NCBI GenBank assembly: GCA_037042185.1
Contig: JAXQJY010000030.1
Coordinates: 1,798,001 to 1,862,000 of the forward strand
Direction of reading: 5' to 3'
Length of the DNA stretch: 64,000 nt
From: Sordariomycetes sp. S80-01Y
Taxonomy: Eukaryota; Ascomycota; Sordariomycetes
How positions within the stretch are numbered: position 1 is the stretch's first letter; each line of letters opens with the position of its first letter. The notes beneath the pieces are model-generated. The model saw only the letters and a program-made list of their open reading frames with translations, did no database searches and was not told the origin of the DNA. Below, one piece after another: positions 4,801-52,049 of this stretch. The translations under genes and the position numbers were made by a program.

Positions 4801-5240
4801 CGTCTTCAACAAAACCACCCCCATCGTCATTGGTGTCGACGTCACCGACGGCCAGTTGAAGATCAACACGCCCATCGCGGCGGTCAAGCAGAGCGCCACT
4901 GGCGGAAAGGAAATCGTCAACCTGGGCAGAGTGTACGTTCCCTCAACCCCCGCCCCTAAAGATCTACCCCGGAAACCAATGCTAACACCGTCGCAGAACC
5001 TCCATCGAGCGCGAACACAAGCAGATCCCCGTCTGCAAGAAGGGCCAGCCCTCGGTGGCCGTCAAGATCGAGATGGGCGGCTCGCAGCCCATCTACGGCC
5101 GTCACCTCGAGGAGGGCGACACGCTGTACTCCCTCATCTCGCGCAAGAGCATCGACACACTCAAGGAATTCTACCGCAAGGAGGTGACCAACGACGAGTG
5201 GCAGCTCATCATCAAGCTGAAGCCCCTGTTCGACATCTAA
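1889..5240 (+). CDS. FUN12: Translation initiation factor eIF5B (IF2-type GTPase)
   Basis: Cytosolic GTPase that joins the 60S subunit to the 48S complex and positions initiator tRNA. Four exons: 1889-2347, 2410-2913, 2966-4932 and 4997-5240, giving 1057 residues, normal for fungal eIF5B. Every junction keeps the frame, and the last intron uses donor GTACGT inside the Arg-Val codons. Residues 1-450 are a charged Lys/Glu/Ala-rich tail, typical of the family. The G domain follows: P-loop GHVDTGKT (473-480), switch II DTPGHE (537-542), NKID (591-594). Beta-barrel domains II-IV run to the end. The start at 1889 (MPPKKK) is the first ATG in a good context; the frame upstream has only a TTG. It is tail-to-tail with hsp88. 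High confidence. Confidence 0.97.
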
Positions 5241-5674
5241 ACCGGCTGGCCACAGGTAAAGAGAGACAGAGTACAGTAGCCCTGGGCGGGAATGTAGGTA
5301 GAGAAGAGGAAGAAGAAGCTAGGATGATGGGGAAAAGTTGCAAGATTAGTATATTCTCATTGTAGGCGCACCAAAAAGAAAAAGACCTTCTGGTTCATCT
5401 TAATCATGATCGCGAGAGGGCGCATGGTGACTTCACAAGCGAATCGTCTAATGGATAGTATAGAAACGGTCTAACATAGGCACGTGTCCATTATCATGAT
5501 AGCATCTCATCTCATCTCATCTCATCGCATCTCCGTAAAACAACGCAGGAAAAACCCAGAACCATGTGTTTTTTGTGTCCTTCGATACTCCCTCTATATC
5601 TTCAGCTTTTTACCCGCGTCGCTCCAATCTTGGCCGGAGCGCCTCTTTCCTGGAGTGCTCGTCTGAGCGCTCCT
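5241..5674. other. Convergent 3' intergenic region between eIF5B and hsp88
   Basis: Holds the 3' ends of two convergent genes. The only structure seen is four tandem CTCAT units at 5506-5525. No coding signal. Confidence 0.6.
5506..5525. repeat. (CTCAT)4 microsatellite
   Basis: Four perfect pentamers, flanked by degenerate copies (ATCTCAT before, CGCATCTC after), in the gap between two convergent genes. Likely replication-slippage repeat. Confidence 0.8.
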
Positions 5675-8369
5675 CTATTTCGGGTCACCGGCCTCCTCGG
5701 TCTCTGGTGCTGGCGCCTCGGCGTCCTTCATCTCGGCGTCGCCGTTGGACTGAGCAGACTTGTCGGCCTCCTCGGCAGCCTTCTTCTCGGCTTCGGCGGC
5801 CTTCCTCGCCTCCTCCTCAGCGGCCTTCTTCGCGGCCACTTCCGCTTCGACGCGCTGGCGCTCGGCCTCGACCTTGTCGAAGTGGCGCTGGACGATGGGG
5901 CCGGCCATGGCGCGGATCTCGTCCATCTTGGCGATGTAGACACCCTTGGAGGCGTCGTCACCCTCGTCGTACAGCCAGTCCTAATTAACCATGTCAGTAT
6001 CCTTTATGCAGGGACAGGGTTGAAGATGGGGCTTACCTCGCTGGCCTCGAGCTTGGCCTTGATTGTGGCCTTCTCCTCCTCGCTGGCAAACTCGGCGTAC
6101 TGCTCGTCGAGCTTAGCACGCAAGTCGTAGATGTACGCCTCGAGCTCGTTCTTCTTCTCCTCGGTGTCGGCAACCAACTTGTCCTCCATCACCATGGCGT
6201 TCTCCTTCTCGGCCAGCGCCGCCTTGGACTGGTCGTCTAGCGAAGCAGTACCGCTGGAGATGGGGAGATCGCCCTTGCGGACTTGCTTCTTAACCTTGCG
6301 GGTCTTCTTGGATCCATCGTCCTTGTTGTCTGTGTCCATAGCCTGTTTAATGCTGTTAGCCATGGACTTGAATGACCGCTTCAAGGATGCGCTTACATCG
6401 GGGTCCTTCTTCTCCTCGCCCTCGGCGCCCTCCTTGACCTCCTCCTCGACCTCCTGGTCCTCAACGTAGTAGCCAGTCTCGACGTTCAGCACACCGTGGA
6501 TGTTGACGCGGGCCTTGAGCTTGCAGATCATGAAGTCGTCGGCACCGTCGGCCTTAACGCCCTTGACAGAGAAGCGGCCGATCCAAGGGTTGGTCTTGCC
6601 GGGCAGCTCTTCTGGCTTGGCATACCGGGCCTCAAGATCGAAGGGCTGCTTGCGGTAGAATGTGAGAATCTTGGTGGAGGGGAGGACGTTAGCCTTGTTG
6701 AAGACGGTGAGGCTGGTGTCCTCGTCAGGAATATCGGGGGCCTTCTCCCAGGCGAACTCGATGGGGTAGCTGACGATGTCCTGGACGGCAAAGTCACGGA
6801 CACGGAAGACGGGGGAGAGGATGGCGCAGCTGAAGGCGCAGCCACGGGCAACAGCCTCGTCGGCGTTCATGGTGTAAGACAGGCCCTTGCCGAAGAACTG
6901 GTGAATGCGCTCCTTGAGAGCGGGGAGACGCGAGCCACCACCCACGATCTCGATGACATCGATGTCATCCTTGGTGATCTTGGCCTGAGCAAGAGCCTGC
7001 TCCAGGGGAGCAACAGTCTTGACCAGAAGGGGCTCGATGAGAGCCTCGAACTCTTGCCTGGTGATCATAGCGCTGACATCAATGTCGTTCATGAGGGACT
7101 CAATGTTGACAGGAGCCTGCTGGTTGGCAGACAGGATCTTCTTGGTCTTCTCGGCGGCGGCGATGGTACGGGCCATGGCGCGGGGGTGGGTGTAGATGTC
7201 GGCCTTGTACTTGCCCTTGAACTCCTTGGCCAAGTGCTCAACGAGGGCCTTGTCGAAGTCACGACCACCGAAGTTGCGGTCCCAGGCAGTCGACTTAACG
7301 GCCAACTCGCCCTTCTTAAACTCGACGATGGAAGCAGTGTAGCTCGAGTGGCCAATGTCGACAATGCAGACGCGACGGGGCTTCTCCTCAGGAGCAGGCA
7401 AGTCAAGCTTGGTGATACCCCAGCCAAGAGCAGCGGCGGTGTTGTCGTTGATCAGACGCAGGACCTTGAGGCCAGCAATCTCGGCAGCGTCAAGCAGAGC
7501 GCGGCGCTGAATGTCAGTGAACCAAGCAGGAACACTGATGCACAGGTCTGAGACGGGAAGCTTGAGCTCAGCGGCGGCGGTGGCCTTGATCTTGCTAAGA
7601 TACATGGCGACAAGCTGGGTCGCTGTGAACTTCTGCTTCTCGCCCATGTAGTTGACCTCGGCGCCGACCTGGCCGTTGACGTCGACAAGAGGCGCGGTGA
7701 CAAACTGTTGCTCGATGGCGACATCGGGGTCGTTGAAGGAACGGCCGAGGAGGCGCTTGATATTGTTGACGGTGTTTTTCAAGTTGGTGATCTCTTGGGT
7801 CTTGGCGGTCTCTCCGAGGTAGCGGCACTTGGGGCCGAAGCCGACCATGGAACTGAGAGTTTGTTAGCTTCCTCTTTCCCCATTGTAAAGGCTGTGGCTA
7901 TTCGCGATCGAAGCGCAAACGGTTCGCGGAACGGCTGGGGTAGCTTACGGGGTGGCTCGGTTGGAGACTTCATTGGTGATCTGCCCACAGAACAAAAGTC
8001 AGCCGTCCATTCTTGCATCTCCATGAAAGCCATGTTCCTCGTCGGGTCACCTTCGCTCGCGACGTCGGCGCAGAAGAGGATTTTGTCGAAGATCAGTGTG
8101 TGTTGTGGGGACGACAGAGCGACTCGACTCGGACGCAGGCTCGGCAGGGAAAAAAGGGATTGTACGCACCACATCGACACCACGGTTCCTCGCAACGGCG
8201 ACGACCGTCTTGAGGGTACCGAAATCAACACCTACAGCACCGTCAGCAAGGCTCATCGACCGTGCGCGAGAGCGGCGGCAGGCAGAGCCGCCGGGGAGGA
8301 GGGGCATCTGGATCGCCGGCCGCAACTCAGCGCAGCGCAGGGACCGAAAAACTCACCCACGACGCTCAT
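5675..8369 (-). CDS. hsp88: Heat shock protein Hsp88 (Hsp110/Sse1 family)
   Basis: Hsp70-superfamily nucleotide exchange factor and holdase acting with cytosolic Hsp70. Exons on the minus strand: 8369-8357 (only 13 nt), 8231-8170, 7980-7949, 7852-6397, 6342-6037 and 5980-5675, giving 724 residues against roughly 700 in Neurospora Hsp88. The N-terminus MSVVGVDFGT carries the phosphate-binding loop, followed by RNRGVDV, ITNEVSNRATP and GPKCRYLGE as in Sse1. The ATPase domain covers about the first 380 residues (IVDIGHSS, IVGGGSRLP), then the substrate domain with an acidic loop and a helical C-terminus ending in an Ala/Glu/Lys-rich coil. The 54-nt intron 6343-6396 has GTAAGC, GCTAAC and AACAG but is stop-free and a multiple of three; keeping it would give 742 residues. 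Heat-shock-like elements lie upstream. Confidence 0.95.
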
Positions 8370-32096: not shown

Positions 32097-33494
32097 ATGC
32101 CTCCAGTTACGCGTACTGATGGAGATAATGAGAATGAGACCTCCACAGTGGAAGCCGTCGCCCCATTAGACCGCCCCTGCAGGCCTGAGAATGCCGAGAA
32201 GCCTGCCACGAACGAAGGAAGCACCCCTCAAGACGCTGTCGAGGAACCCCCTACTGAAGCATCCGCCACTGACGTGCCGCCGATTCCTGATGGCGGCTAC
32301 GGATGGTGGGTTATCTTCGCCTGCTTCGTCCACATGTTCTGGCTGAATGCTTGGACGGGGTCGTGGGGCATACTGCAAGTCGCGCTGCTGCGGACGACAC
32401 TAGACCACTCCACGTCGAGCACCCTATCATTCATAGGTTCACTCGGTATTTCCATGTCAGTCGGCCTCGGTATCCTAGCCATCTGGATTGCCCGGAACAT
32501 CGGCGCCCGCTGGACCAGCTTGATTGGCATCGTGCTCTACGGGCTGGGCTGTGTCGCCAGCGGATTCGCTGTCCACACTGTCCCCGGGATGTTTGTGGCC
32601 TGCGGTCTCACCTACGGGATCGCCTCGTTTCTGCTGTATACAATGACCAACAGCCTGCCTGTGCAATGGTTCAGCACAAAGCTGGGTACGGCAAATGGCA
32701 TCGTGAAGCTTGGGGGAGGCATCGGAGCCACTGCCATGGCGCTGGTCACCGGAAACCTCACTGACAGTGTTGGCATCGCGTGGACCTTTAGGATCATGGG
32801 ATTTGCATCCCTAGCTACCGGTGTTCCCGTGGCATTTTTGATTAGGGAGCGGCTTCAGAAGCACGGCGGCTTCTCCATCGACTGGACACTGTTCAAAGAT
32901 TTGCCCTTTTGCTGCTTCTTCGGAACCGGAGTGATGGGAGTGTTTGCAATCTACGCGCCTTCTTTCTTCTTGCCGTATGTGTCGTCCTCCATCGGCCTCT
33001 CGAGTTCAGTCTCAGCCGGAGTCATGGCATGCTTCAATGCGTGCATGTCCATAGGACGTCTCACGTCGGGAATCGCTTGCGACAAGCTCGGAGCCATGAA
33101 CGTGTTGGTTTTGACAATGGTAGTCAACGCCGTAACTATGTTTGCCGTGTGGTCTGTTTCATCCACGTTGGCCATTCTGCTCGTCTTCGCCATCTTCAAC
33201 GGGCTCGCGAACGGGTCCTTTTTCGTCGCACTGCCCACGGCCATCAGCCGGCACGTGGGAGAGCGGCGGGCTGCGGGAGCAATGAGCCTTGCTCTGACCG
33301 GGTGGACTCCCGGTCTCCTCCTTGGAAACCCAATCGCGGGGTTTCTGATCGATGCATTCCAGGCTGATGAGGCGACTTCTATTGCCCCCTACCGGCCAGC
33401 CATCTTCTATGCCGGTGCCACAGCCGTCTTGTCAGCCGTCTTCGCCCTCCTCGCGCGATTGAGGGTAGATGTTAGGCTTGCAATCAAGGTGTAA
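32097..33494 (+). CDS. Monocarboxylate-type MFS transporter (MCT family)
   Basis: Single exon of 465 residues. The hydrophilic N-terminus ends in the MCT signature PDGGYGWWVIFACF (about residues 62-75), directly before membrane segment 1. Twelve hydrophobic segments follow, with the expected pattern of WF-x-KRG-like sequence replaced by WFSTKLGTANGIVKLGGGIGA between segments 4 and 5. A cytosolic loop lies in the middle (RERLQKHGGFSID) and segments 7-12 end at LLARLRVDVRLAIKV. Fungal members import monocarboxylates, riboflavin or other small acids, or export metabolites. The substrate cannot be read from sequence. Next to methyltransferase and oxygenase genes it could serve a small metabolite cluster. 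Confidence 0.9.
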   Translation: MPPVTRTDGDNENETSTVEAVAPLDRPCRPENAEKPATNEGSTPQDAVEEPPTEASATDVPPIPDGGYGWWVIFACFVHMFWLNAWTGSWGILQVALLRTTLDHSTSSTLSFIGSLGISMSVGLGILAIWIARNIGARWTSLIGIVLYGLGCVASGFAVHTVPGMFVACGLTYGIASFLLYTMTNSLPVQWFSTKLGTANGIVKLGGGIGATAMALVTGNLTDSVGIAWTFRIMGFASLATGVPVAFLIRERLQKHGGFSIDWTLFKDLPFCCFFGTGVMGVFAIYAPSFFLPYVSSSIGLSSSVSAGVMACFNACMSIGRLTSGIACDKLGAMNVLVLTMVVNAVTMFAVWSVSSTLAILLVFAIFNGLANGSFFVALPTAISRHVGERRAAGAMSLALTGWTPGLLLGNPIAGFLIDAFQADEATSIAPYRPAIFYAGATAVLSAVFALLARLRVDVRLAIKV

Positions 33495-34666
33495 TCCGTT
33501 CAATTCGGGGTCAGTTGTACTTAGTTTTCGAGCCGCATTCTGGGCGGTGACAATACTCAGCGGCGAAGGATTCCTGTGCGAGGCGATTTCTAGGTGAAGA
33601 AGCAGCATGACGCTTCGTTGCTGGTCATAATGAAGGATTATGGAAGACTTAAGCCGACTTAAAGACCCAGAAGCTCCAGCGAACTGGACCAGAGCCAGAT
33701 TCCAAATTCTACGTGATCTGACCTGTTTAGCTTTAACTCGAGAGTGTTAGCGCGGCTGCTTCTCATGTTCCAACCGTTAACTTCTCGTGGACCACAACCA
33801 GACCCGGCCCTGACATTTCCGCTGCGGACACCGCTCCCTAGATGATGGAGAGTTTCCACGGAAAAGTCGCAAGCAAGACTCAGCTTCTCAACTACTAATT
33901 AACTTCAAAAGATCTATTCAACGCTTCAGCGGCCGACGCTCTCGAGCCTCGGCCCTCAGCCCGGTACGCCCATCCCGCCAGCATTTCAACTTATTTATTT
34001 CACCCCCAATGGTCTAGAGTCTCTAATGGGCTTAGATTGGACGGATAGGACAGCGGAGTCAGTATTGAGTGCCTACCTACCTCATCCAAAGACTCATCTT
34101 TGCTGATCACCTGTTATTTAGTTGCCTGATAGTCGCCCTTGCAGTCAGTGTGACCTCGAGAGTGAAGGCAAGGACGAAGCTAGTACTTATAACGTTATTC
34201 TTTCCAGAAGCTAAAAGCACTTATAATTGACATTGCTCAAGTGCTTGCGCATCGATTCCCATTTAAGGCAGCAACGGGAGAAGGGTGTATTCGCGGCGTT
34301 TGGTGGTAGATACGAAGTTCAATTATTGACCCGAATTCTGAATAGTTCGCTCCCCATCCCTTACAGGGTAGGAGTCACTCCTGGATAGCCCCCTCAATTC
34401 TGAGTAATAGTACACAATAAGATACTCTTAGGTTTACATGTTGCTTCATGTTAACCAAGAATGAGCCCCTGTTGTAGTTTAACTGTCACCTGCGGGTTAC
34501 CTCGCTATATACAACATTTACATAATTCGTAGTCTTACTGTTTTTGTATATAATATTCAACAAAAGCGATTTTTAGAAGCATTCATAAGTGTCTCTAAGT
34601 ATTTACTATTTGCAAAGAAAACGCTTAGCTTGCTTGAGATGCGAATGATGAAGACTATGCCTGCTG
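33495..34666. other. AT-rich gene-free 1.2 kb
   Basis: Between convergent MCT-transporter and guanine deaminase genes. By eye it is clearly richer in A and T than its neighbours, especially 34380-34620, with many TA steps (TATATACAACA, TATATAATATT). This may be a decayed repeat or simple 3' sequence; no coding frame, target-site duplication or inverted ends could be shown. Confidence 0.5.
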
Positions 34667-36028
34667 CTACCGGGACCCAGCTACTCTGCGGCCCCTCACG
34701 TACACATTGGCTATATTGCGATCATCTCCAGTCATGATGAATTTCTCAAAAACCGCCCTCAAAGTATCCTCTTCGCCTCGCGGCGTCATCGCAGAGTGCA
34801 GCCCTGTAGTCGTCGACACCACCATCGCGTCGAACTGCTTCCCAACCTGGAAACTGCCGATCTGGTCGTCAAGGCACATCACCCTGGCGCCTCCCAAGGT
34901 CGCAAGGTAAAAGGCCTCCTCCAGGGAGAGCCCCTTGTCCTGCCCCTGGGACATGACTTCTCGGGCGTTGGAGGCTATCATCGCTTGTCGGATAACTATG
35001 AGCATTTGTGACGCCCAGCCGCCACCACTGTCCGTACCAAGGCCGACCTTGATGCCCCGGCGCAGGAAGTCTCGCACCGGGGCGACCATGAACCCGCCGC
35101 CAACGGTCATGTTGGCGATGGGGCAGTGGGCGACACCGCACCCCAGGGCTGCAATTCTCTCCTTGTCATAGTCGGTCATGATGGTACAGTGTGCCAGGAT
35201 AGACCTCGGGCCGAGAAGGCCAAAGCTCTCGTACAGATCGGCCTCGCTTTTTGCGGCGAGGTCCGGGAACAGCTCCCTCGTCGCCAAGATCTCCTGTTCG
35301 GCCTCATTGAAATGCGTCTGCATGGCCAGCTCTCCGTCCGCCTTCATCATATCGCCCAGCCCTCGCAGCAGATCCGGTGTGCAGCATATGGCAAACCGAG
35401 GCGTCACGATCGGCTTCACGAGGGCATGCTGCGGGTCGCCGCAGCCGGGAAGTCTCCTTATGTGCGTGATGCACGCCTCGGTCTCGCGCAAGGAGACGGA
35501 AGCGTCCTGCTCGCGGATGTACTCCGGTGCGTTGCGGTCCATGTTGCACTTACCGACGAAAGCGCGCTGGCCCTTCTCGAGGCATATCTCGGCCAGGATG
35601 CGTGTCGACTCGCCGTGCTGTGAGCTGTAGTACGAGGCCGTGGTGATGCCCTGGCGTAGGAAGTCAGACACGGCGTGCTCGTAGGTCTTGCGGGCGTAGG
35701 CGGCGTCTGCGAAGCACGCCTCGACGGGGAAGGTGACCTGGTCAAGCCATTCAAGGATGTGCAGGCCTTGTCCCAGGCCGCGCATCGGCCATTGAGGTGC
35801 GTGGTTGTGTGTATCGACGAAGCCGGGGAGGAGGAATTCTCCAAAGGCGAGATGGTGTATCTCGGCGTCCTTGGGGATCGCAGGTTCTAGGGCTCCATCA
35901 TTGGGGTATTTTTTGAAGGCGGTTATCACGCCGGCCTCGTTGACGATGAGGGTTGCGTGCTCGAGGACTTCGAGCTCCTCGAGGCTCTTGGAGTGGATCG
36001 CCGCACCGTAGAATACTTTAGCCGTCAT
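34667..36028 (-). CDS. Guanine deaminase
   Basis: Amidohydrolase that converts guanine to xanthine and ammonia in purine salvage and catabolism. Single exon of 453 residues; start at the ATG at 36028 (MTAKVFYGA), because upstream the frame offers only a GTG. The metal and active-site motifs are present: PGFVDTHNHAPQW (metal ligands His74 and His76), MQTHFNEAEQE, AHCTIMTD and GLGTDSGGG with the catalytic Asp. Length matches fungal guanine deaminases. Related 8-oxoguanine or N-heterocycle deaminases share the fold, but PGFVDTHNHAPQ is the guanine deaminase form. Divergent from a Zn2Cys6 regulator across a 411-bp promoter holding CGGGCGAG repeats, which suggests pathway-specific control. Confidence 0.93.
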   Translation of the reverse strand: MTAKVFYGAAIHSKSLEELEVLEHATLIVNEAGVITAFKKYPNDGALEPAIPKDAEIHHLAFGEFLLPGFVDTHNHAPQWPMRGLGQGLHILEWLDQVTFPVEACFADAAYARKTYEHAVSDFLRQGITTASYYSSQHGESTRILAEICLEKGQRAFVGKCNMDRNAPEYIREQDASVSLRETEACITHIRRLPGCGDPQHALVKPIVTPRFAICCTPDLLRGLGDMMKADGELAMQTHFNEAEQEILATRELFPDLAAKSEADLYESFGLLGPRSILAHCTIMTDYDKERIAALGCGVAHCPIANMTVGGGFMVAPVRDFLRRGIKVGLGTDSGGGWASQMLIVIRQAMIASNAREVMSQGQDKGLSLEEAFYLATLGGARVMCLDDQIGSFQVGKQFDAMVVSTTTGLHSAMTPRGEEDTLRAVFEKFIMTGDDRNIANVYVRGRRVAGSR

Positions 36029-36184
36029 CACGTATGCTGGCGTGGTGGTCACATCTCGTCCTCTACGAAGCCGTGAGATATAGACAGCGTGCTGCCGTGA
36101 TCTCTCTCTTGGGCAGGAAGCATAAGACGTAGGAGTTCACTTCTGGACCCGGTGTTGGCCGGCCGGGCTGACCCGCAATTCCTC

Positions 36185-36202
36185 CGGGCGAGTCCGGGCG
36201 AG
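36185..36202. promoter_or_regulatory. Tandem CGGGCGAG sites
   Basis: Two copies of CGGGCGAG with start-to-start spacing of exactly 10 bp, one helical turn. They contain CGG triplets typical of Zn2Cys6 binding sites. The second runs into CGAGCTCGG, seen again at 40105-40113. Confidence 0.4.
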
Positions 36203-36243
36203 CTCGGCGGAGCTGCCACGACCCTTCCCGGATGGGCCCGGAT

Positions 36244-36259
36244 GAGCTCGGGCGAGTTT
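36244..36259. promoter_or_regulatory. Shared 16-bp element, copy 1
   Basis: GAGCTCGGGCGAGTTT, identical to 40106-40121. It lies 181-216 bp from the start codons on either side. Candidate binding site of the adjacent Zn2Cys6 factor. Confidence 0.5.
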
Positions 36260-36439
36260 GTTTGTGTGAATCTGAGCCACACCTGAACCAGGCGCCCGGG
36301 ACATCAGGGCTGCATTGCTTTGCAGGTTTTGGCTGCGCTTCTCACCTCTTGCCTCTGGAAACTCGTCTACGTCGTCCCCGCTTGGAGGGACTGAGGGACT
36401 CACCCGAGGACCGCCAGACAAACGCGCGCCTCTCGGACA

Positions 36440-38447
36440 ATGTCAGACACCTCCGCATCCCTCAGAACCACTCAGAGAGTCCCGCGCAGCTGTATCCCGT
36501 GCTCGTCCCGCAAAGTCAAGTGCGATAAGGGGGAGCCGTGCGTGACCTGCGTCCGCCGTGGCGAATCATCTCTTTGCGTTCGCGAGACTGTGCTGATCAG
36601 GGGCGAGCCGAAAACGTCCGTCTCGTCCCCAAATCCCCGTCAGCGTGCGAGGAACAAGGTCGCGGTAAACAGAGCTAACTTTTTGTCTGGCAGATGGCAA
36701 GAGACCCGGCGTGTTCCCACCCCTGACTCCGAGAGCTTGATGCAGGAAATTGTGTGTCTAAAGGCAGAGTTGCGCGCTTTTAAAGATGCACAGAATTCGC
36801 ATGTTCGGCTCGGCATTGCTCAGGGCCCAAGGAAGGGCCGTCAGCTGGAGAACAGGGACTCGATGGAGGACTCACTATGGGACAGCATCAGCTCGAATAT
36901 CGTGGCTTCGAGGTCCAATGTTGTGAATTGGGATGATGTCGTCCTACCTGCCCGGTCACTTAGCAGCCGTCTTGTCGCTTACGATAGGACTTGGAATTCC
37001 TGGGTCCACTATGCTCTCGAATACCCTCGTTTCCAGCACGAGTGCGATGCCTTCATGGACGCAATGGACAGCGGTGTGTCGCTCGGGGGGCATGACCCCT
37101 TCTGGATGGCTGTCTACTTCAGCGTTATATCCGTGGGTTGCACCGGCCGTTCCCTCACCATCTTCTTGTTTTTGCTTACAACTTGTAGACGGCGCTGCTG
37201 ATGATGGATGAGGAGGAAGCTGCAGGAGTACTTGCTTCCCAGCATGTCGGTAAGCTGTGCCTCTAACTACCAAACCATTATGAGGACTACCTTGTGCCTT
37301 TGCTAAGCAAGTGTACAGCCATGGACGTAAGAAGCCTCTGCCGCAACTGGTATGATGCCGCCATCTTCTGCCTTTATCGAGCAGAGTTCATGCGGGTACC
37401 ACACATCTGCACGGTCCAGTCGATTGCTATCCTGGGCATGTGCTTCAACATCCTCGGCGATGTCGACCTTTACCAGCATCTTTGGAGCATTGCCATTCGC
37501 GTTGCTCAGCGACTGGGCTTGAACACACCGAGCTCCCAGAAAGCCGGCGCATTGACACCAGAAGCACAGCACCGCCTCTGGTGGACATTAACAATTTGCG
37601 AGTGGTGTGTCCTTACTTGTGTTTTGAGTCGTTTAAGGACGCTCTATAATCTAACATACGTATGTTATAGGCTAAAGGACCCAAACGAGCCAACACAGAT
37701 CGAAGAGGTCGACTTCGATGTTCCCCTCCCATGCCCACTCCAGACTTCTGTTACTGGGAGAATGACAAATCTTGATCCAGCTCATTATCACCTATTCATG
37801 GCGAGAACTTCCACAGTTTACAACAGGTTCTGTCAGTCGCTCCGGAGGAGCGCGCTCTCCCTCGAGGACATTGTCAAGGCAGCCGACGAGGAGTTGGCAC
37901 TCGTCATTGACACTCTCCCTGACCATCTGCAGCCTGACCTCGGCATCACCGAAGGCGTCAGAGAGCTCGAGCTGTCACAGCCGTGGATCAAGTGGCAGCG
38001 TTTCGATATCACCCTCGTGCTCCTACAGCAACGGGTTCGCATCAACCGCACCCTTCAGCGCCACTGGCTATCATCGCCGGGTAGGTACGACTGGGCTCGA
38101 GCCGTCTGCATTAGTTCCTCACTAGAGATCATATGGATCAGTCGTAACTGGGACCAACCAGTGTCTATGCGGAAGCAGTGGTAGGTGAAAGCCGGGGGAG
38201 AGAAGATGCCACTTTCTATCATGTGCTAATCCAATGCGTGTATAGGGCGCTCTCTCTTCACTTGTTTGTGGCATCGATCTTGCTGCTTAGAGAATGGCGA
38301 AGTTCGTACGATGGCCGCGGCCGCGAGTACGAGGAGGCGATTGAGGTTGCCATATCCATCCTAAAACAAGTCCAATCGGAGAACGAGATCGCTCGTCATG
38401 CCGTCCGAATATTGAGGAACAATTTACCTATCCCGCATCCATACTAG
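36440..38447 (+). CDS. Zn2Cys6 transcription factor with fungal-specific regulatory domain
   Basis: Nuclear regulator of 583 residues in five exons: 36440-37132, 37189-37249, 37319-37604, 37671-38180 and 38246-38447; all joins keep frame. The binuclear zinc cluster has C18-x2-C21-x6-C28-x5-C34-x2-C37-x8-C46 with the basic RKVKCDKG. A short coiled segment follows (SLMQEIVCLKAELRAF, near 95-115). The middle-homology region is in residues 200-430, with the family's LGMCFNILGD, AQRLGLN and QHRLWWTL. The third intron donor, GTGTGT, is weak. It is divergent from guanine deaminase and convergent with the DUF1479 gene, so it is the natural candidate for controlling the group at 34.7-42.2 kb. Confidence 0.92.
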
Positions 38448-38497
38448 TAGTAACAATACCTAAGAGCAGCTTCTGCGCTTACTCATCGCCTCTCGCT
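38448..38497. other. 50-bp gap between convergent stop codons
   Basis: The regulator and the DUF1479 gene end only 50 bp apart, so their transcripts must overlap or terminate inside each other. Confidence 0.7.
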
Positions 38498-39872
38498 TCA
38501 CAGGTCAAACCCGAAAGCTCGTTTTGCTTCCGCTGTAAGGCCGCCCAGGCCGACGTATCCTCGAAGTTTGGTCTCGTCCAAATCGTTCCCTTCGCTGTAG
38601 TCAGGAGACGGCTTTCCCGCCAGAGTAGCCTCGAGTTGTCTCTTGACGTATGCTTTGTTAGCCGGGGTGGATGGACAGGCTGCGATGTAGGCGACCGAAG
38701 CATTGTTCGAGCCCAGATGTTCGGTGTCTACGGCGTGGCAGAGCTTGAAAGAAGAGCATCGCGTCAGTCTAATGGCTTGCAAGGGCTGGAAAGGATAGAC
38801 TCACGTCAGAGTGCCACCAAACCGTGTCACCTGGTTGGAGCTTCGGCATGTGAACGAGGCACTGCTCTAGCCTTAGGTGTGGGTGAGAAGTCCGGCTCAA
38901 GCGCTGGCTGTTCGGCTTGGTCGTGCCGGGGAACCAGCCCGTCTCTGTGTCAAGTGTCCATTTCTCGGCGTCGAGAACATCGGCCGGGTTCGAGGGTTGG
39001 GTGAAGAAGGGCCGCAGCAGCACGTACGCAATAACGCTGGCGACGTTTGGGTACACCATGACAGTGCCCTCCCGGGGGGCGGTCGGTGTCAGGGCCGTCC
39101 AGCCCTGGAAAGATCGAAAGACGGATGAGTGAGCCATGCCGGGGAAAAGCTCCTGGTTAGCTGAGGAGCGGGTTGCGAGATCATAGCAGTCGTGTTCGTC
39201 GAGCTTGCCCGAGAGGATCTTGTCGTAGGTCTTGAGGTAAGCCTCGTCTGCCCAGCGACACAAGCTGCCAGCATCAATGTGTGGTCCAAGCCCGAGGAAC
39301 AGCTGTCCCGGTGTTCGATCACGGACTCCATCGTGATATATCAGTGGATCGCTCGACGTGTTTCCCGTCGCGTCGTGCCACAAGCTGTTGAGCAGACGCT
39401 GCAGCTGGAGCTGGTTGGGGTGCGCACGAAGGGTGTTCTGAGTCGGAGAGTCGTACAGGATGAGCATCGACGGACTGTCTGCTGGCCATCCTTTGATGGC
39501 TTCTCTGTTGTCCGCAATGTATTGCTTGAGCTCGCTGTAGAGGTTGCTGGTCTCAGCCTCGGAGACAGTTGCCCTGAAGACGAGAGTCCCGATCCTCTTG
39601 ACTTCTTCTCGTTGACTATCGGTGAACCCTCCAGCAGCCAAGACTGTCTCGGTGTCGAAAACGGGGATGATGGAGCTTCCCTTGGCTGCGATCTCCTCAG
39701 TCACACTTTCGAGATCCTTGCACACTTGCAGCCAGCCTCGGCGGAGGGCATCGCCACCGTATCGGTCGATGACTGCTTTCTTGACGCTCAAGAATTCGGG
39801 GTCTTCTGTGTTCTTGATGCCCTGAGCGGCGAACTCGGGCCAAGCAGGCCACTCCCAAGTCTGAGCGGGCAT
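38498..39872 (-). CDS. DUF1479 (YbiU-like) protein, probable Fe(II)/2-oxoglutarate-type fold
   Basis: Two exons, 39872-38805 and 38743-38498, give 437 residues, the family's usual length. Typical segments are present: KKAVIDRYGGDALRRGWLQVCKDLESVTEEI near the N-terminus, LGLGPHIDAGSLCRW in the middle, and MPKLQPGDTVWWHSDLCHAVDTEH across the exon junction. HxD (HID) plus the later WWHSD/H are compatible with a cupin-type metal site, and the family has been proposed to be iron/2-oxoglutarate oxygenases; no substrate is known to me. The acceptor TTTCAAG follows a pyrimidine tract. Start MPAQTWEW at 39872 is the only in-frame ATG before the conserved region. It shares a promoter with a sugar-type transporter. 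Confidence 0.88.
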
Positions 39873-39874
39873 GC

Positions 39875-40044
39875 TGATAAGGGGCGGTGATGAAGTGTGG
39901 CCAAAGGGTCGAGTTTGGGTAGACCTAAAGAAGAATGGGGGACGGGCTTGTCTGGACTACGCAGCTTATCTTGACGAGATGCGAGAAAGTTCAGTTTATT
40001 GCTTTGAACTGCTTTAAGAGTCCATGGCTTACCTCAAATTATCT
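39875..40044. promoter_or_regulatory. Three HGATAR (AreA/NIT2-type) sites
   Basis: TGATAA at 39875-39880, and AGATAA on the minus strand at 39966-39971 and 40039-40044. GATA factors of this type switch on nitrogen-scavenging genes when good nitrogen is lacking. Single sites occur by chance; three in 170 bp beside a deaminase group are suggestive only. Confidence 0.35.
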
Positions 40045-40105
40045 GCATAGCATGGAGTTGCCGCCGCCTTCGACGCCGGATCCACATGTCCTGTCGAGCC
40101 CGGCC

Positions 40106-40121
40106 GAGCTCGGGCGAGTTT
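40106..40121. promoter_or_regulatory. Shared 16-bp element, copy 2
   Basis: GAGCTCGGGCGAGTTT, identical to 36244-36259 in the same orientation. Here it extends into the palindrome CCGAGCTCGG (40104-40113), that is CCG and CGG half-sites four bases apart, a form that suits a dimeric Zn2Cys6 protein. Confidence 0.5.
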
Positions 40122-40334
40122 TCGATCTGCGTTCTTACTCGCTGGTCATTACTCGCTGTCCATCTTTTGGGCGCAGGATCCGGGGTAGCTCTGATTACCG
40201 GTATCTTGTTGGCGGGTCGGGACTGGGGCTACGGGCGCCAGCACCGAGCTAATACTGGAGCAGATGCAGGGACGATAAGGGAGACTAATGGTCGACGACC
40301 AGTTGCGAAGCCTAGATCTCCATCAGTTTGGCGA

Positions 40335-40340
40335 TATAAA
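40335..40340 (+). promoter_or_regulatory. TATA box of the MFS transporter
   Basis: TATAAA, 117-122 bp before the ATG at 40457. Confidence 0.45.
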
Positions 40341-40456
40341 GTGCAATGCATCGTGTCCGCTTCCATTTCCGATTTCCAGCCCGTCTGAGTTGTCTGACCA
40401 AGTGACTACTTGTTCGCTCCCGCTCGGCACGCAACCATCCCACCTATTCACGCACC

Positions 40457-42243
40457 ATGGCCAGCTCCGGAGCATTCAAACGTCAGCATGTATCAAAGCT
40501 GATTCCGGCGGACCACAGGGTGCTGATGCCCCTGTTACTGGCTGTGACCATCGTCAACTCGGCGGTAAGTAGCCCTCCGTAGACCTCCATGGCATCTCAG
40601 AGTCGCAAAATCGCCATACTGATATGTCTATTCTTAGACGCTGGGATATGACTCTTCTGTGATGAATGGGCTGCTCATCCTGCCCGTGTACTCCGAGTAC
40701 TTCAAACTCAACACCGCCACAGAGGGTCTCAATAATGCCGCCATGTGGATGGGCGGTATCGTAGGTGCCTTCCTCATGCAGCCTGTGCCCGACTACTTCG
40801 GGCGCAGGAAAGCCATCTATATCGCATCAGCAGTCACGATAATCGGCGTGATCCTTCAGGCCGCTGCGCAGAACATCCCCATGTTTGTCATCGCACGCTT
40901 CATTGTGGGCGTAGGCTCCGCCATCAGCAACGGTGCCGCGCCAACACTTCTCGGCGAACTTCTGCCCCCTCGCCAGCGCGCCCGGGTCCTTGGGCTGTTC
41001 TTCTCCTGCTACTACGTCGGCAGCCTGGCGTCCGCTATCGTCAACTATGGGAGCCAGAACATCGGCAACACCTGGGCTTGGCGCCTGCCTTCGCTCTTGC
41101 AGTTCGTGCCCAGTCTGCTGGCCGTTGCCATCGTCCCGTTCGTCCCCGAGTCGCCTCGCTGGCTCATTGCCCACGACCGCAACGAGGAAGCTCTCGAAGT
41201 CCTCATCCTCATGCAGGGTAAAGACAAGACCGACTTGAGAAAGGGCGACGAACAGCTGAACGAGATCCGCAACACGATCAAGCGTGAAGCGATCGAGTAC
41301 CCGCGCAACCCTTGGAGAGAAATCGTGTCCACCAAAGCGAATCGCAAAAGGCTTGCTATTCTTTGCACGTTCGGTCCGATGATCAACATGTTTGGCAATT
41401 TCATTATCTCGTAAGTGGATCAGTCACCCTCTTTCTCGTCCGAGGATCAATCTTCTCACCAAACAACAGCTACTATCTGGGCAAGATTCTTGGCCAAGCC
41501 GGTATCACGAGCGTCAAGACGCAGACGCAAGTTCAAGTGATCATCAGCTGCTGGTCATTCGTCGTGGCTGTAATGGGAAGCTTCATGCTTGACATCCTCG
41601 GGCGAAGGGTTCAGACATTCATCAGCGTAGGGGGGATGACTGCGTCTCTGCTTCTTATCGGGGGCCTCATTAAGAGTTCGTGACTTTCCCACCCCCGGCG
41701 CACTTACTTGATCGCTAACACCTGGTCCAGAATACGGCGAGAGCTCGGATACGTCTGGCATTTACGGCACTGTGGCCGCCATCTTCCTCTTCCAGGGTTT
41801 CTATGCTTTTGCCATCACCCCAATGACAAGCTTGTATCCGACTGAAGTATCGCCATTCAAGCTCCGTGCGACCGGCATTGCCATCTTCCGCATGTTGGAT
41901 GGAGGTTTCGGGTATGTTCAGTCAGCAGCTACAATTTGGTCCTTATGTTCATTGCTGACATCTTTACCCCCTTACTAGTCTCCTTGCCTCCTTCGCTATG
42001 GCATACGCAATGGCTGATCTGGGATGGAAGTTCTACTTCATCAACGCTGCATGGGACTTTGTTTTCCTCATCATCGCGTACTTTAGCTTCGTGGAGACGA
42101 AGGGTCTCAAGCTGGAGGAAATCAATGCCAAATTTGAGGGACAGGAATTTATCGAGGGCTTGGCTGAAGACTCATCCTCTCAGGGCGGAGGGTTCGAGAC
42201 GATCAAGGCCGGGGGGGTCCAGACTGTCAAACCTGTTATGTGA
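40457..42243 (+). CDS. MFS sugar-porter-family transporter
   Basis: Plasma-membrane 12-segment transporter of 510 residues in five exons: 40457-40564, 40638-41410, 41470-41675, 41731-41911 and 41979-42243. Sugar-porter signatures are all visible: GYDSSVMNG in segment 1, PDYFGRRKAIY after segment 2, RFIVGVGSAISNGAAPTLLGELLPPRQR, PESPRWLI before the central loop, DILGRR between 8 and 9, YPTEVSPFKLRATG, and FVETKGLKLEEI at the C-terminus. It resembles the lactose/hexose-like fungal subgroup. Many members carry substrates other than sugars, and with guanine deaminase and DUF1479 nearby a nucleoside or glycoside cannot be excluded. Confidence 0.93.
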
Positions 42244-43190
42244 ATATATAGTGACCACTGGGCCAATAGTTCAATGCTCCCTACCATGATTGCTTACCTG
42301 TTGTGTAGCAAGGCTTGTAGCGCATTGGAGTCGGCGATGTACCTACATCACATGGCGATCTGACATTTATTTCGTGAACGTACCCGGCTGATACGAACTC
42401 ACATGACTGAAGCTCGACATTCATAGCTATTGGTGCCTCTAGCAACTCAACGATGAGTATAGAATACTACTAATTATATGCCTGACCACTTCTTCACCAG
42501 TATCACTCGTCGTCTAGAGAGTCCACCGTGAGCGCGAATCCAAGCACTGACCTAAGACTCAAAGACTGCGAGGCGTTTTCAAGGCTCCTTAGAGTTCCAT
42601 AAACTATATCTCGCCACTTGAATGTGTTCTCCGCCTTTTAATCTAGTAAGATCTTGGGGTCAGAGCGACGGCATCAATAAGTGCCGAGGCATCCCGCATG
42701 AGGCATTACTTACGAATAGTGATGTTTCGAAACTTAACCACTCGCAACTATGTCCTGGTAAGCTATAAGAGGTAATATTAAAGAGCCGAGGCACCGAGGT
42801 CAGTAAGTCTATAGTGTAGTATGTAAGTGGAAGTAATTGTTAGTCTTCGTTTAGAGAAGCCACTATTGCTATATAAATGATAGGGGCACGCTCCTACGAT
42901 GTGTGTATATATAGGCCACAGTAACAAAGTTATCTCTTCCAACATAATAATAATATTCGCTTCCTAAGTTCTTGATCTTTCTCTTGGTCCAAATTGCGGT
43001 AGCGAGCTAATGTGTCACCGTACCAGCACGTGACTTGGCGCGATTCCCGCGATGAACAAGCACGTCATTGATCATGGTCGCCACGAGCCCACTACGCTTC
43101 TTCAACTCGACCTGTAATCCGCATCTCCTGCTCGACAAAGGCTCAAACGCCCCATTTGGAAGGCCCAATATGAGCTGAAGATACATAAAC
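42244..43190. other. AT-rich intergenic region
   Basis: About 950 bp. The part 42700-42970 is visibly AT-rich, with TATATATA-type runs and a TAATAATAATA stretch near 42945. No gene, repeat boundary or RNA was recognised. It holds the 3' end of the transporter and the promoter of the helicase. Confidence 0.5.
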
Positions 43191-49345: not shown

Positions 49346-52049
49346 TCAGAAGAACAGCAAATCATCCTCTTTCCAGCCCATATTTAAGAAGACCTCCTTG
49401 GCCGTCTTCTCCATGGGCTCAGGGCCGCATATGAGGACCATCTCCTCTCCAGCCGGCGACTTGGGCGGTCCGACTTCCTCGGCAAAGAAAGCCTGGTTCA
49501 TCCTGCCCCTCTTTCCAGCCCAGCTATCCTCCGGCCTGCTCAGGGTATGGACGAGGCGGTATCTGTGGGGGTTGGCCTTTGCGAGTGCGTCAAGGTCGGT
49601 CCGGCAGAGAATGTCCTGCTCGGCTCTGTTGCCGTCCAGGACCAGGCACTCCGTTTGATCCTCGGAGTCCTTCATAACTGCTCGCAGGACCTGGAAGATG
49701 GGGGTGATGCCCGAGCCGCCGCAGACCATGACAAAACGTCGTATGGGGCGTGTGTGTCCCGAGATGCTCGCCTTCCCCTGACCGAGGTACTCGAACTTCC
49801 CAACGGGGCCCTTGAAATCGACAAAGTGGCCCAGGGGGATGGCGTCAAGTGCCTGCGTCATCTTGCCTCCCTTACACTCCGGCGTATCGTAGTACACCTT
49901 GATCAGGATCTCCAGCCTGCCCTTCTCGCCGGCCTCGGACAGCGGCGTGTAAGGGCGGATGATGGCCTCCCTCGTTGCAGGGTCGCGCAGACGCATAAGC
50001 AGGTGTTGGCCCGTCGGGAGACCTATATCCTGATTCCCGTGGTCGAGTCTGAAGACGAAGACGAAGCTGTCTGACGAGACGCGCTTCTTCTCTTCGAGGA
50101 TGGCCTTGCTCCAGGCTTTGGGCTGGAGGAAGACGGCGCGGTTGGGGTCGCTCTCCTCGGCGGCGGCGTCCCCGTTGGCGAGGGCTTCGCGGGATGCAGC
50201 GTCGAGGGTGCCGATGTGATACTCTGGCATCATTGCCTTCGCATTCTCGCTGTCTGCCGTGGTATTAGCGAGCGGCTTTTACATGCTAGCGGGCTGACTT
50301 ACGTATTGTGACGAACTCTTCTGTAGCGTCTTGACCAGCTGCACCAAAGATGGATGCCGCACCACCAGGGTGAGCATCCAGATAGGGAGTGCCATCGTAG
50401 ACCTCTCCGTTGACGACGAACCATGGTTCAGTCTCGCCGTCATGCGCCTTGAGTTCCGCCAAGGTTATAGTTCTTTCGACCTTCGGATTCGTCATGACAA
50501 TCTCCTTCTCCGGCTCAGGCTCGACGTGCGGACTATCGTCGCCAGACATCCGCTCGCCCCAGAATCCGTTGGTCAGGTCGCCGCCTGCTTTCTTCACCCT
50601 CTCCATCCATCCGCCGGGCATGAGAGCCGGCTGTGTCGGATGCTCGAAGCGTAGCGAATGTCCCTCCTTATGGATGACAACCCTGAACCAGGGATTGTTC
50701 ATCATACCCAGCACACTCCAGTACATGTCGCGCGGCTGGACCATCATGCCTTCGTCCATGGCTCGAACCATGACGTCGTCGGCTTCGCGCAGGTCGTCGA
50801 GCGGTATGTCGAGATCCCAGAAGCACCAGCAGAACGACGTCTCGCGCCACCACATATCGACTCGCCCGCCGTAGAGCGTGTCGCCGTCGGGGGCGTTTCG
50901 ATAATCGTCTTCGGGATATCGCAGATTCGCCAGACGCCAGGATTTGCCCTTGTCCAAAGTCACTTCCATCCTCGTGATTCGCTTCCCGCCGCCACCATAG
51001 GCGTAACCTTTGATGTTGTAACTCCGGTTCTCGCCAGTCAAGGGCAAGGTCTCGTTGTGAGCCGGGAAGCAGATGGCGCTGTTGGAGTTCAAGTCGTAGA
51101 TGGCGTACCGTTCATCCTTCCAGGTTTCAGGCAGGTTGGCGCTCTCCTCAGGCGAGACTGTGGTTGGGAGAACTCGGTTGTCGTAGATGTGGTACCAGTT
51201 GTCGCTCGGCTCGGCGGTGACGATGATCTTCTTCAGCCACTTTACGCTTCGCCCCCCTATCTGTCCAGGCACGACGATGCGCACCGGCTTTCCATGGTCG
51301 GGATGGAGCTTTTCGCCGTTCATCTTGTGAGCCACCAAGATGCCCTTGTTTGGATCCATGCACCAGTTCAACTTGAGGGATGTGCCATAATAGCCATTGG
51401 GGAGCTTGTCTGCGCCCTCGAAGCAGACATACTTAGCTCCTCTCCTTGGCAGCGCCCGAGCCAGCAGTTCGCCTACCGGAACGCCAGTCCATAGAGCGGT
51501 AGCAAGACCAGCAGCACCCCATGAGAAGCCTTTCGACTTGCGGACCATGTTCTGCTCTTTCCGTCGGTTGCCGGCACACACTAAAGTGATAGGATAAGTA
51601 GCCTGTTCGTAATCGGCTAACAAGTCCCGGACGGTCATGGTGATTGGGTTTTCCACCATGCCCTCTATGCTGAATTCCCAGCTGAGCATGTCATCATCCT
51701 CGCACTTGGGCACTGGCCCGTGGTTCCGGACATAGTGCAAGTCTTCGCTCGTCAAGAATCCGTCGTTGTACAGGTCGCTGAGGGGCGGCTCAACATTGAA
51801 CGGGTGGACGCCGGTGAGACGAATAAGGCGAGGATCTCGTTCGACATGGCTGTCTGGTGTCTTCAAGTCTTCCTTGAGGACCTGCTTCTTGGTTGCCTTT
51901 GGGGGAAGGGGATAGTATCCGGGTGTTACTTCTGATGACGGCGTTGTCGGCTCGTCTGGTGAAGAATCGCGAACTGTGTCAACACTTCCTGATCTCGAGT
52001 GTTTCGCCGTTGGTGGCGGGCTGGGTGGAAATTGTGTATATGTAGCCAT
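49346..52049 (-). CDS. niaD: Nitrate reductase (NADPH)
   Basis: Cytosolic enzyme reducing nitrate to nitrite, first step of nitrate assimilation. Two exons, 52049-50303 and 50253-49346, give 884 residues, normal for fungi. Domains in order: molybdopterin domain (about 95-340, with LVCAGNRRKEQN holding the Mo-binding Cys), dimerisation domain (about 350-490), cytochrome b5 (about 530-600) with haem ligand His560 in HPGG and the second in TIHS (His583), then FAD (RPYTPLSE) and NADPH (CGGSGITP; CGPEPM) domains ending DDLLFF. The His583 codon is split by the 49-nt intron; acceptor CGGCAG rather than the later GACAG keeps frame. It stands alone, without nitrite reductase or a nitrate transporter nearby. 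GATA sites upstream fit NIT2/AreA control. Confidence 0.96.

What the first reader, a model, noticed from the sequence alone, without database searches (positions are those of the whole stretch)
34667..42243. Four-gene guanine deaminase group with the same 16-bp word in both bidirectional promoters
Guanine deaminase and a Zn2Cys6 factor diverge across 411 bp; DUF1479 protein and a sugar-family MFS transporter diverge across 584 bp; the factor and DUF1479 genes converge with a 50-bp gap. GAGCTCGGGCGAGTTT occurs identically at 36244-36259 and 40106-40121, plus two more CGGGCGAG words at 36185-36202. With equal base use, a shared 16-mer between two such promoters on either strand is expected about 1 time in 10,000, though I looked at several promoters. 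This points to a self-regulated uptake and breakdown unit for a guanine-type compound, with DUF1479 as a possible oxygenase. I know of no described cluster with this content.
Basis: partly seen in the sequence, partly recalled or inferred. Interest (0 to 1): 0.75.

Follow-up and report, generated by a model that had tools for sequence, protein, structure and literature searches.

The report
Conserved fungal purine-type catabolic gene cluster
Four neighbouring genes in a filamentous fungus (a guanine-deaminase-like enzyme, a regulator, an oxygenase of unknown substrate and a sugar-type transporter) share a ten-base repeat in their two promoters that is almost unique in the genome, and three of the four stay together in other fungal classes, so they probably form an undescribed, self-regulated nutrient-breakdown unit.

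Summary
The 16-mer occurs only twice in the 30.9-Mb genome, once per bidirectional promoter. It belongs to a tandem 10-bp unit, YYCGGGCGAG: the two-unit 20-mer at up to one mismatch occurs genome-wide only in these promoters, and 4 of 6 matches at up to two mismatches lie there. The transporter's linkage elsewhere was not tested. The substrate is less clear: the cluster deaminase is not the housekeeping enzyme, since a GUD1 orthologue lies elsewhere, and bacterial DUF1479 genes show no deaminase nearby. The DUF1479 protein is a credible Fe(II)/2-oxoglutarate oxygenase. Best reading: a pathway-specific, probably autoregulated catabolic cluster for a guanine-like, perhaps substituted, aminopurine. 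My searches listed no paper describing it. It would give an orphan oxygenase family a testable substrate class.

The parts
34667..36028 (-). guanine-deaminase-like amidohydrolase, single exon, 453 aa
   Evidence: Pfam Amidohydro_1; NCBIfam guan_deamin 369.1 bits, cut-off 375.4; catalytic and substrate residues invariant in A3
36183..36212 (+). decamer array A1: three tandem 10-bp units TCCGGGCGAG TCCGGGCGAG CTCGGCGGAG
36227..36256 (+). decamer array A2: CCCGGATGGG CCCGGATGAG CTCGGGCGAG (first unit has three mismatches and was read by eye); overlaps one copy of the 16-mer (36244-36259)
36440..38447 (+). Zn2Cys6 transcription factor, five exons, 583 aa (exons 36440-37132, 37189-37249, 37319-37604, 37671-38180, 38246-38447)
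   Evidence: Pfam Zn_clus and Fungal_trans on separate open frames; model; DNA-binding domain strongly conserved in homologues
38498..39872 (-). DUF1479 / Gig2-like protein, two exons (39872-38805, 38743-38498), 437 aa, probable Fe(II)/2OG oxygenase
   Evidence: Pfam PF07350 306 bits; HxD...H conserved; fold of orthologue P0121; stop checked
40089..40118 (+). decamer array B: TCCTGTCGAG CCCGGCCGAG CTCGGGCGAG (first unit lacks the CGG triplet); overlaps the second copy of the 16-mer (40106-40121)
40457..42243 (+). MFS sugar-porter-family transporter, five exons, 510 aa
   Evidence: TIGR00879 238.7 bits, cut-off 237.8; best solved relatives GlcP and STP10; model

Best explanation
A pathway-specific catabolic gene cluster. 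Its core (guanine-deaminase-like hydrolase, Zn2Cys6 factor, DUF1479 oxygenase) is conserved in Pezizomycotina; here a sugar-porter MFS gene is added. Inferred mechanism: an imported small molecule, or a product of it, activates the Zn2Cys6 factor; the factor binds tandem decamers (CGGGCGAG core, CGG triplets 10 bp apart, one helical turn) in both divergent promoters and switches on all four genes, its own included; the MFS protein imports the compound, the DUF1479 enzyme oxidises or dealkylates it, and the deaminase removes an exocyclic amino group from a guanine-like ring, releasing ammonium and a xanthine-like product that can enter the ordinary purine pathway. Shown: gene content, arrays, near-uniqueness of the arrays, synteny of three genes, oxygenase fold and ligands, guanine-site residues. 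Inferred: binding, autoregulation, substrate, order of reactions.
For: Exact 16-mer only in these two promoters. YYCGGGCGAG x2: at <=1 mismatch only these two promoters genome-wide, at <=2 mismatches 4 of 6 matches, at <=3 mismatches 5 of 43 (reversed control 39). CGGNNGAGNNCGGNNGAG: 4 of 19 matches (reversed control 12). On the + strand, CGG start-to-start distance 10 is seen 5 times in promoter A and once in B, of 18 in the 64-kb window. Zn2Cys6 domain and linker strongly conserved in the 44 of 75 homologues where the motif was found, two of them (P0308, P0314) divergent. Residues H74, H76, Q79, R211, F212, H239, E242, H280, D333 invariant in 9 of 9 aligned deaminases. H198, D200, H359 invariant in 32 of 32 DUF1479 homologues. 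Fold matches YbiU and Gig2, then Fe/2OG oxygenases.
Against: The deaminase scores just under the curated guanine-deaminase cut-off (369.1 against 375.4) and is not the GUD1 orthologue. Sugar porters are not the known fungal nucleobase transporter families (recalled). 0 of 80 bacterial DUF1479 loci hold a deaminase relative at E 1e-4 (control: the DUF1479 query finds 80 of 80). Transporter conservation was not tested. No expression or binding data. The decamer was derived from these promoters, so part of the enrichment is circular; at three mismatches the genome-wide total (43) hardly exceeds the reversed control (39), and the 13-base core at one mismatch has 53 matches against 41. Promoter A also has four CGG-N7-CGG pairs on the other strand and promoter B only one pair in all, so the CGG-direct-repeat reading of the site is not settled. 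Fungal relatives' promoter DNA could not be read.
Confidence: 0.6

Rival explanations
1. The DUF1479 protein is mainly a control element: like CLR-3 of Neurospora, itself a DUF1479 protein, it restrains the adjacent Zn2Cys6 factor, perhaps by consuming the inducer, while the deaminase is the only pathway enzyme.
For: [quoted passage not shown] A second DUF1479 gene in this genome lies beside a Fungal_trans gene (L039). Another paralogue (L041) has lost the HxD pair and the histidine matching H359.
Against: The cluster protein and its 32 aligned relatives keep HxD...H, which suits an enzyme. Orthology to CLR-3 was not tested.
Confidence: 0.15
2. The cluster simply degrades free guanine, and the DUF1479 enzyme hydroxylates the product xanthine to urate, as XanA does in other fungi.
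For: Guanine-site residues are conserved. 2OG-dependent xanthine hydroxylation is known in fungi (XanA, recalled).
Against: The genome already holds a GUD1 orthologue and one protein of the xanthine-dehydrogenase/aldehyde-oxidase family (PF01315). A sugar-porter transporter does not suit free guanine. The UaY-type site TCGG-N6-CCGA (recalled) is absent from both promoters.
Confidence: 0.12
3. The compound is a toxic or modified purine (methylated, 8-oxo- or analogue base, or a natural-product purine), and the cluster is a detoxification unit.
For: Extra paralogous deaminase with a loop two residues longer than in the GUD1 orthologue, an oxygenase able in principle to dealkylate, class-crossing gene trees.
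Against: No resistance gene among the four; the MFS family is that of sugar uptake.
Confidence: 0.18
4. The decamers are a minisatellite or a chance likeness, not binding sites.
For: Tandem short units can arise by slippage. The loose 16-mer count in the window is unremarkable (25 of 100 shuffles reach it).
Against: Two promoters 3.9 kb apart share the unit while flanking sequence differs. Simulated promoters carried the tandem pattern in both in 0 of 20,000 trials. Genome-wide near-uniqueness at up to two mismatches.
Confidence: 0.1

Closest known systems
Canonical fungal guanine deaminase (GUD1)
   Same: Amidohydrolase family and the catalytic and guanine-contact residues
   Different: Separate group: solved yeast guanine deaminase scores 267 bits against the cluster enzyme and 399 against the orthologue elsewhere in this genome
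DUF1479 / Gig2 / YbiU family (PF07350)
   Same: 306 bits; same fold as 6akz, 2dbi, 2dbn, 2csg, 4rgk, 7twe (model of an orthologue); HxD...H kept
   Different: Lies in a cluster with a deaminase. Candida GIG2 is named for GlcNAc induction (PDB title) and called a component of GlcNAc metabolism in a reference title (the paper itself is not held). E. coli ybiU heads an operon with a sugar phosphatase gene (passages of PMC8464067)
Aspergillus nidulans hxn nicotinate regulon
   Same: Fungal catabolic genes clustered with their own regulator and co-induced (starts of abstracts of PMC5746545 and PMC8478523)
   Different: Different enzymes and substrate; regulator HxnR is a Cys2/His2 protein, not Zn2Cys6
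CLR-1 / CLR-3 circuit of Neurospora crassa
   Same: A C6 zinc factor paired with a DUF1479 protein whose promoter it binds (passages of PMC12892961)
   Different: Concerns cellulose; no deaminase mentioned in those passages; adjacency of the two genes not checked

Membership tests
Guanine deaminase (NCBIfam TIGR02967, equivalog) | score at or above the curated cut-off 375.4 bits | tested here: not met
   369.1 bits; of six others scanned, Plenodomus 383.3 and Oculimacula 398.1 pass, Emericellopsis 370.7, Pyricularia 365.6, the C14 paralogue 355.5 and the GUD1 orthologue's exon 363.9 do not
Guanine deaminase | zinc and guanine-contact residues (roles recalled from the human enzyme) | tested here: met
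   H74, H76, Q79, R211, F212, H239, E242, H280, D333 invariant in 9 of 9
Guanine deaminase | orthology to the housekeeping GUD1 | tested here: not met
   the orthologue by score is at C13:1631242 (399 bits, against 267)
Guanine deaminase | deamination of guanine | not testable with these tools
   needs an enzyme assay
DUF1479 / Gig2-like | PF07350 above gathering score 27 | tested here: met
   306.3 bits
Fe(II)/2OG oxygenase | HxD...H metal ligands | tested here: met
   H198, D200, H359 invariant in 32 of 32; H354 is invariant too, and which of the two is the ligand was not tested; present in the window protein
Fe(II)/2OG oxygenase | double-stranded beta-helix fold | tested here: met
   model of orthologue P0121, pLDDT 85.4; first seven rows are DUF1479 structures, the rest of the 50 shown are mostly Fe/2OG oxygenases at E about 1e-6, TM-score 0.33-0.40 by query length; the HxD loop has pLDDT under 50
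Zn2Cys6 activator | six-cysteine cluster and fungal_trans domain | tested here: met
Sugar porter MFS | TIGR00879 above cut-off 237.8 | tested here: met
   238.7 bits, barely above
UaY purine regulon | TCGG-N6-CCGA site (recalled) | tested here: not met
   absent from both promoters
Fungal catabolic gene cluster | genes kept together in related genomes | tested here: met
   three of four genes; MFS not tested
Fungal catabolic gene cluster | co-induction by the substrate | not testable with these tools
   no expression data

The most novel reading that the evidence does not exclude
The DUF1479 enzyme is an oxidative nucleosidase or dealkylase: it oxidises the sugar or substituent of an imported guanine glycoside, nucleoside or N-substituted guanine so that the base falls off, and the dedicated deaminase then takes the amino nitrogen. 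This would be a first assigned pathway for the DUF1479/YbiU/Gig2 oxygenases outside GlcNAc and cellulose regulation, under a Zn2Cys6 factor reading helically phased repeats.
Probability: 0.1. Interest if true: 0.75.

Novelty: new member of a known kind. Interest (0 to 1): 0.5.

Why it matters
DUF1479 (YbiU, Gig2, CLR-3) is a widespread oxygenase-like family, from SAR11 and enterobacteria to fungi, and no passage that I saw assigns it a reaction. A conserved cluster that ties it to a guanine-deaminase-like enzyme, a dedicated regulator and a defined promoter word gives a short list of substrates and a clean genetic test. It would also add an undescribed nitrogen- or carbon-scavenging route to ascomycetes of several classes.

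Tried and rejected
DUF1479 as replacement for xanthine dehydrogenase: weakened, because the genome has one protein of that family (PF01315; aldehyde oxidases share the domain, so it is not proven to be xanthine dehydrogenase).

Neighbours, judged on family representatives only, are a LacI-type gene in 21 of 80, an SBP_bac_1 binding protein in 10 of 80, and in 26-27 loci, by their titles all Pelagibacter relatives, a 2-hydroxyacid dehydrogenase, an EamA transporter and a deacetylase-like gene. This is mixed, partly sugar-type and partly not; I do not build the substrate on it.

Other genomic matches to the tandem pattern: of the 15 outside the cluster, 11 were inspected. They lie in open frames of 125 to 765 codons, eight of them of 230 or more; none was followed as a second regulon site.

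Papers: search listings with starts of abstracts only, except passages of PMC8464067, PMC12892961, PMC10406608, PMC10879430, PMC7832408, PMC13029064, PMC5545021 and PMC7203126; none was read whole.
Full report
Observation. The window is G000:C13:1798001-1862000 of an unnamed 30.87-Mb, 16-contig fungal genome. A 13-base core CTCGGGCGAGTTT has one further exact match, on C7, inside a 490-codon open frame; at up to one mismatch it has 53 matches in all against 41 for the reversed pattern. Scanning for the decamer YYCGGGCGAG shows that both promoters carry tandem 10-bp units: 36183-36212 and 36227-36256 between deaminase and factor, 40089-40118 between DUF1479 and MFS genes (the first unit of the second array has three mismatches and was read by eye, the first unit of the third lacks CGG). 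In that scan tandem pairs at up to two mismatches per unit appeared nowhere else in the window and in one of 13 other 10-kb stretches; that one was among four chosen because they held a pattern match. Genome-wide, the two-unit 20-mer at up to one mismatch is found only in these two promoters; at up to two mismatches 6 places, 4 of them here; at up to three 43 places against 39 for the reversed pattern, 5 of them here. The looser pattern CGGNNGAGNNCGGNNGAG gives 19 places, 4 here, reversed control 12. The pattern came from these promoters, so the fair reading is that promoter A defines the unit and promoter B, 3.9 kb away and otherwise different, repeats it. In 20,000 first-order Markov simulations, 1 copy of promoter B held the tandem pattern and none had it in both promoters. 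The tool warns that its DNA search skips simple repeats and very common words.

Genes. The deaminase has one exon, 34667-36028. The factor has five exons ending at 38447. The DUF1479 gene has two exons, 39872-38805 and 38743-38498. The transporter has five exons, 40457-42243 (splice sites by eye, with full-length homologues of similar length for the first three). Pfam gives Amidohydro_1, Zn_clus and Fungal_trans, Gig2-like PF07350 and Sugar_tr.

Deaminase. Three guanine-deaminase-like genes lie in the genome, with a fourth weak match. The copy at C13:1631242 is the GUD1 orthologue by score (399 bits to solved yeast guanine deaminase); the cluster copy scores 267 and the C14 copy 273. The cluster enzyme keeps the metal and guanine-contact residues (their roles are recalled from the human enzyme). 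It falls just short of the curated equivalog cut-off; of the homologues scanned some pass and some do not. It differs from the GUD1 orthologue by a loop two residues longer (TVGGGFMVAP against SLTSGAAS). Guanine or a close relative is therefore likely but not certain.

DUF1479. H198, D200 and H359 are invariant in 32 of 32 relatives. A model of the Emericellopsis orthologue (pLDDT 85.4) matches DUF1479 structures 7twe, 4rgk, 6akz, 2dbi, 2dbn and 2csg and then Fe/2OG oxygenases. The HxD loop has low confidence in the model. The genome holds four further clear members and one weak one. One of them (L041) lacks the HxD pair and the later histidine, and one (L039) stands beside a Fungal_trans gene.

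Synteny. In the protein searches, names carry locus tags. Consecutive, in the same order: Plenodomus lingam deaminase 7698, factor 7699, DUF 7700; Boeremia exigua deaminase g3982, factor g3983, DUF g3984; Oculimacula yallundae DUF 2984, factor 2985, deaminase 2986; Aspergillus californicus DUF 218516, factor 218517, deaminase 218518 (the last two are JGI-style numbers, which need not follow position). Pairs: Verticillium albo-atrum deaminase 4764 and DUF 4765; Fusarium nematophilum 6350 and 6352; Fusarium torreyae DUF 9220 and deaminase 9222; Fusarium austroafricanum DUF 4991 and factor 4992, deaminase on the same contig. Classes were looked up for seven species: Leotiomycetes (Oculimacula), Dothideomycetes (Boeremia, Plenodomus, Bimuria), Eurotiomycetes (A. 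californicus), Sordariomycetes (Verticillium, Emericellopsis). A shared multi-megabase contig alone is weak; seven of the contigs are under 60 kb, one 8,672 bases. The factor's zinc cluster and linker are strongly conserved in the 44 of 75 homologues where the motif was found, with two divergent rows, which predicts the same DNA site in most of them.

Trees. FastTree trees of selected homologues (52 of the 120 listed deaminases; 31 of the 75 regulators) do not follow the classes (mostly recalled): deaminases of Bimuria and relatives sit inside a Sordariomycete group (nodes 0.98, 0.72 and 0.96, though the immediate sister node is only 0.24), and Fusarium groups near Aspergillus in both trees (0.89 and 0.92). 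Bimuria is not among the listed regulator or DUF1479 rows. Horizontal transfer, or old duplication with loss, is likely; I did not test between them. No tree was made for the DUF1479 proteins.

Function. The most economical reading is an inducible, probably autoregulated catabolic cluster for a guanine-like compound carrying something an oxygenase must remove, taken up by a sugar-type porter. The PF01315 gene could supply the next step. The bacterial context neither supports nor excludes this: a deaminase in 0 of 80 loci, neighbours partly sugar-type and partly not. Four HGATAR sites lie in the DUF1479/MFS promoter and none in the other.

Literature. DUF1479 is named in 11 held papers, none together with guanine deaminase; ybiU with guanine deaminase, 0. 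Searches on guanine deaminase with fungal gene-cluster terms listed no paper on such a cluster (20 of 271, 20 of 20 and 15 of 188 papers shown; listings only). CLR-3 as a DUF1479 brake on a C6 factor is the nearest regulatory precedent.

Noticed in passing
50286-52049 (-): Exon of a nitrate reductase [NADPH]-like gene (598 bits to solved 2bih), about 8 kb from the cluster: a second nitrogen-assimilation gene nearby.
   Followed up: partly
L041:4042-5493 (G000:C14:720173-721384): A DUF1479 paralogue that has lost the HxD pair and the later histidine, hence probably non-catalytic; could be a CLR-3-type regulator, not tested.
   Followed up: partly
L039:1671-2933 and 4468-5778 (G000:C10): Another DUF1479 gene beside a Fungal_trans gene; pairing of DUF1479 with C6-type factors may be a recurring theme.
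   Followed up: no
33500-34670 and 42250-43000: The cluster is flanked by stretches of lower GC (0.43-0.51 against 0.52-0.63 inside) that hold no open frame of 100 codons wholly within them.
   Followed up: no
L037:4492-5796 (G000:C14:2170494-2171795): A third guanine-deaminase-like gene, 55% identical to the cluster enzyme, with no tandem decamer in the fetched 10 kb.
   Followed up: partly
L053, L056, L057 and other Pelagibacter loci: DUF1479 in SAR11 sits in a conserved neighbourhood with a 2-hydroxyacid dehydrogenase, an EamA transporter, a deacetylase-like gene, LysE and an ABC importer: an unexplained pathway.
   Followed up: no
32097-33494 (+): MFS_1-family transporter gene next to the cluster; no tandem decamer array lies near it.
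   Followed up: no
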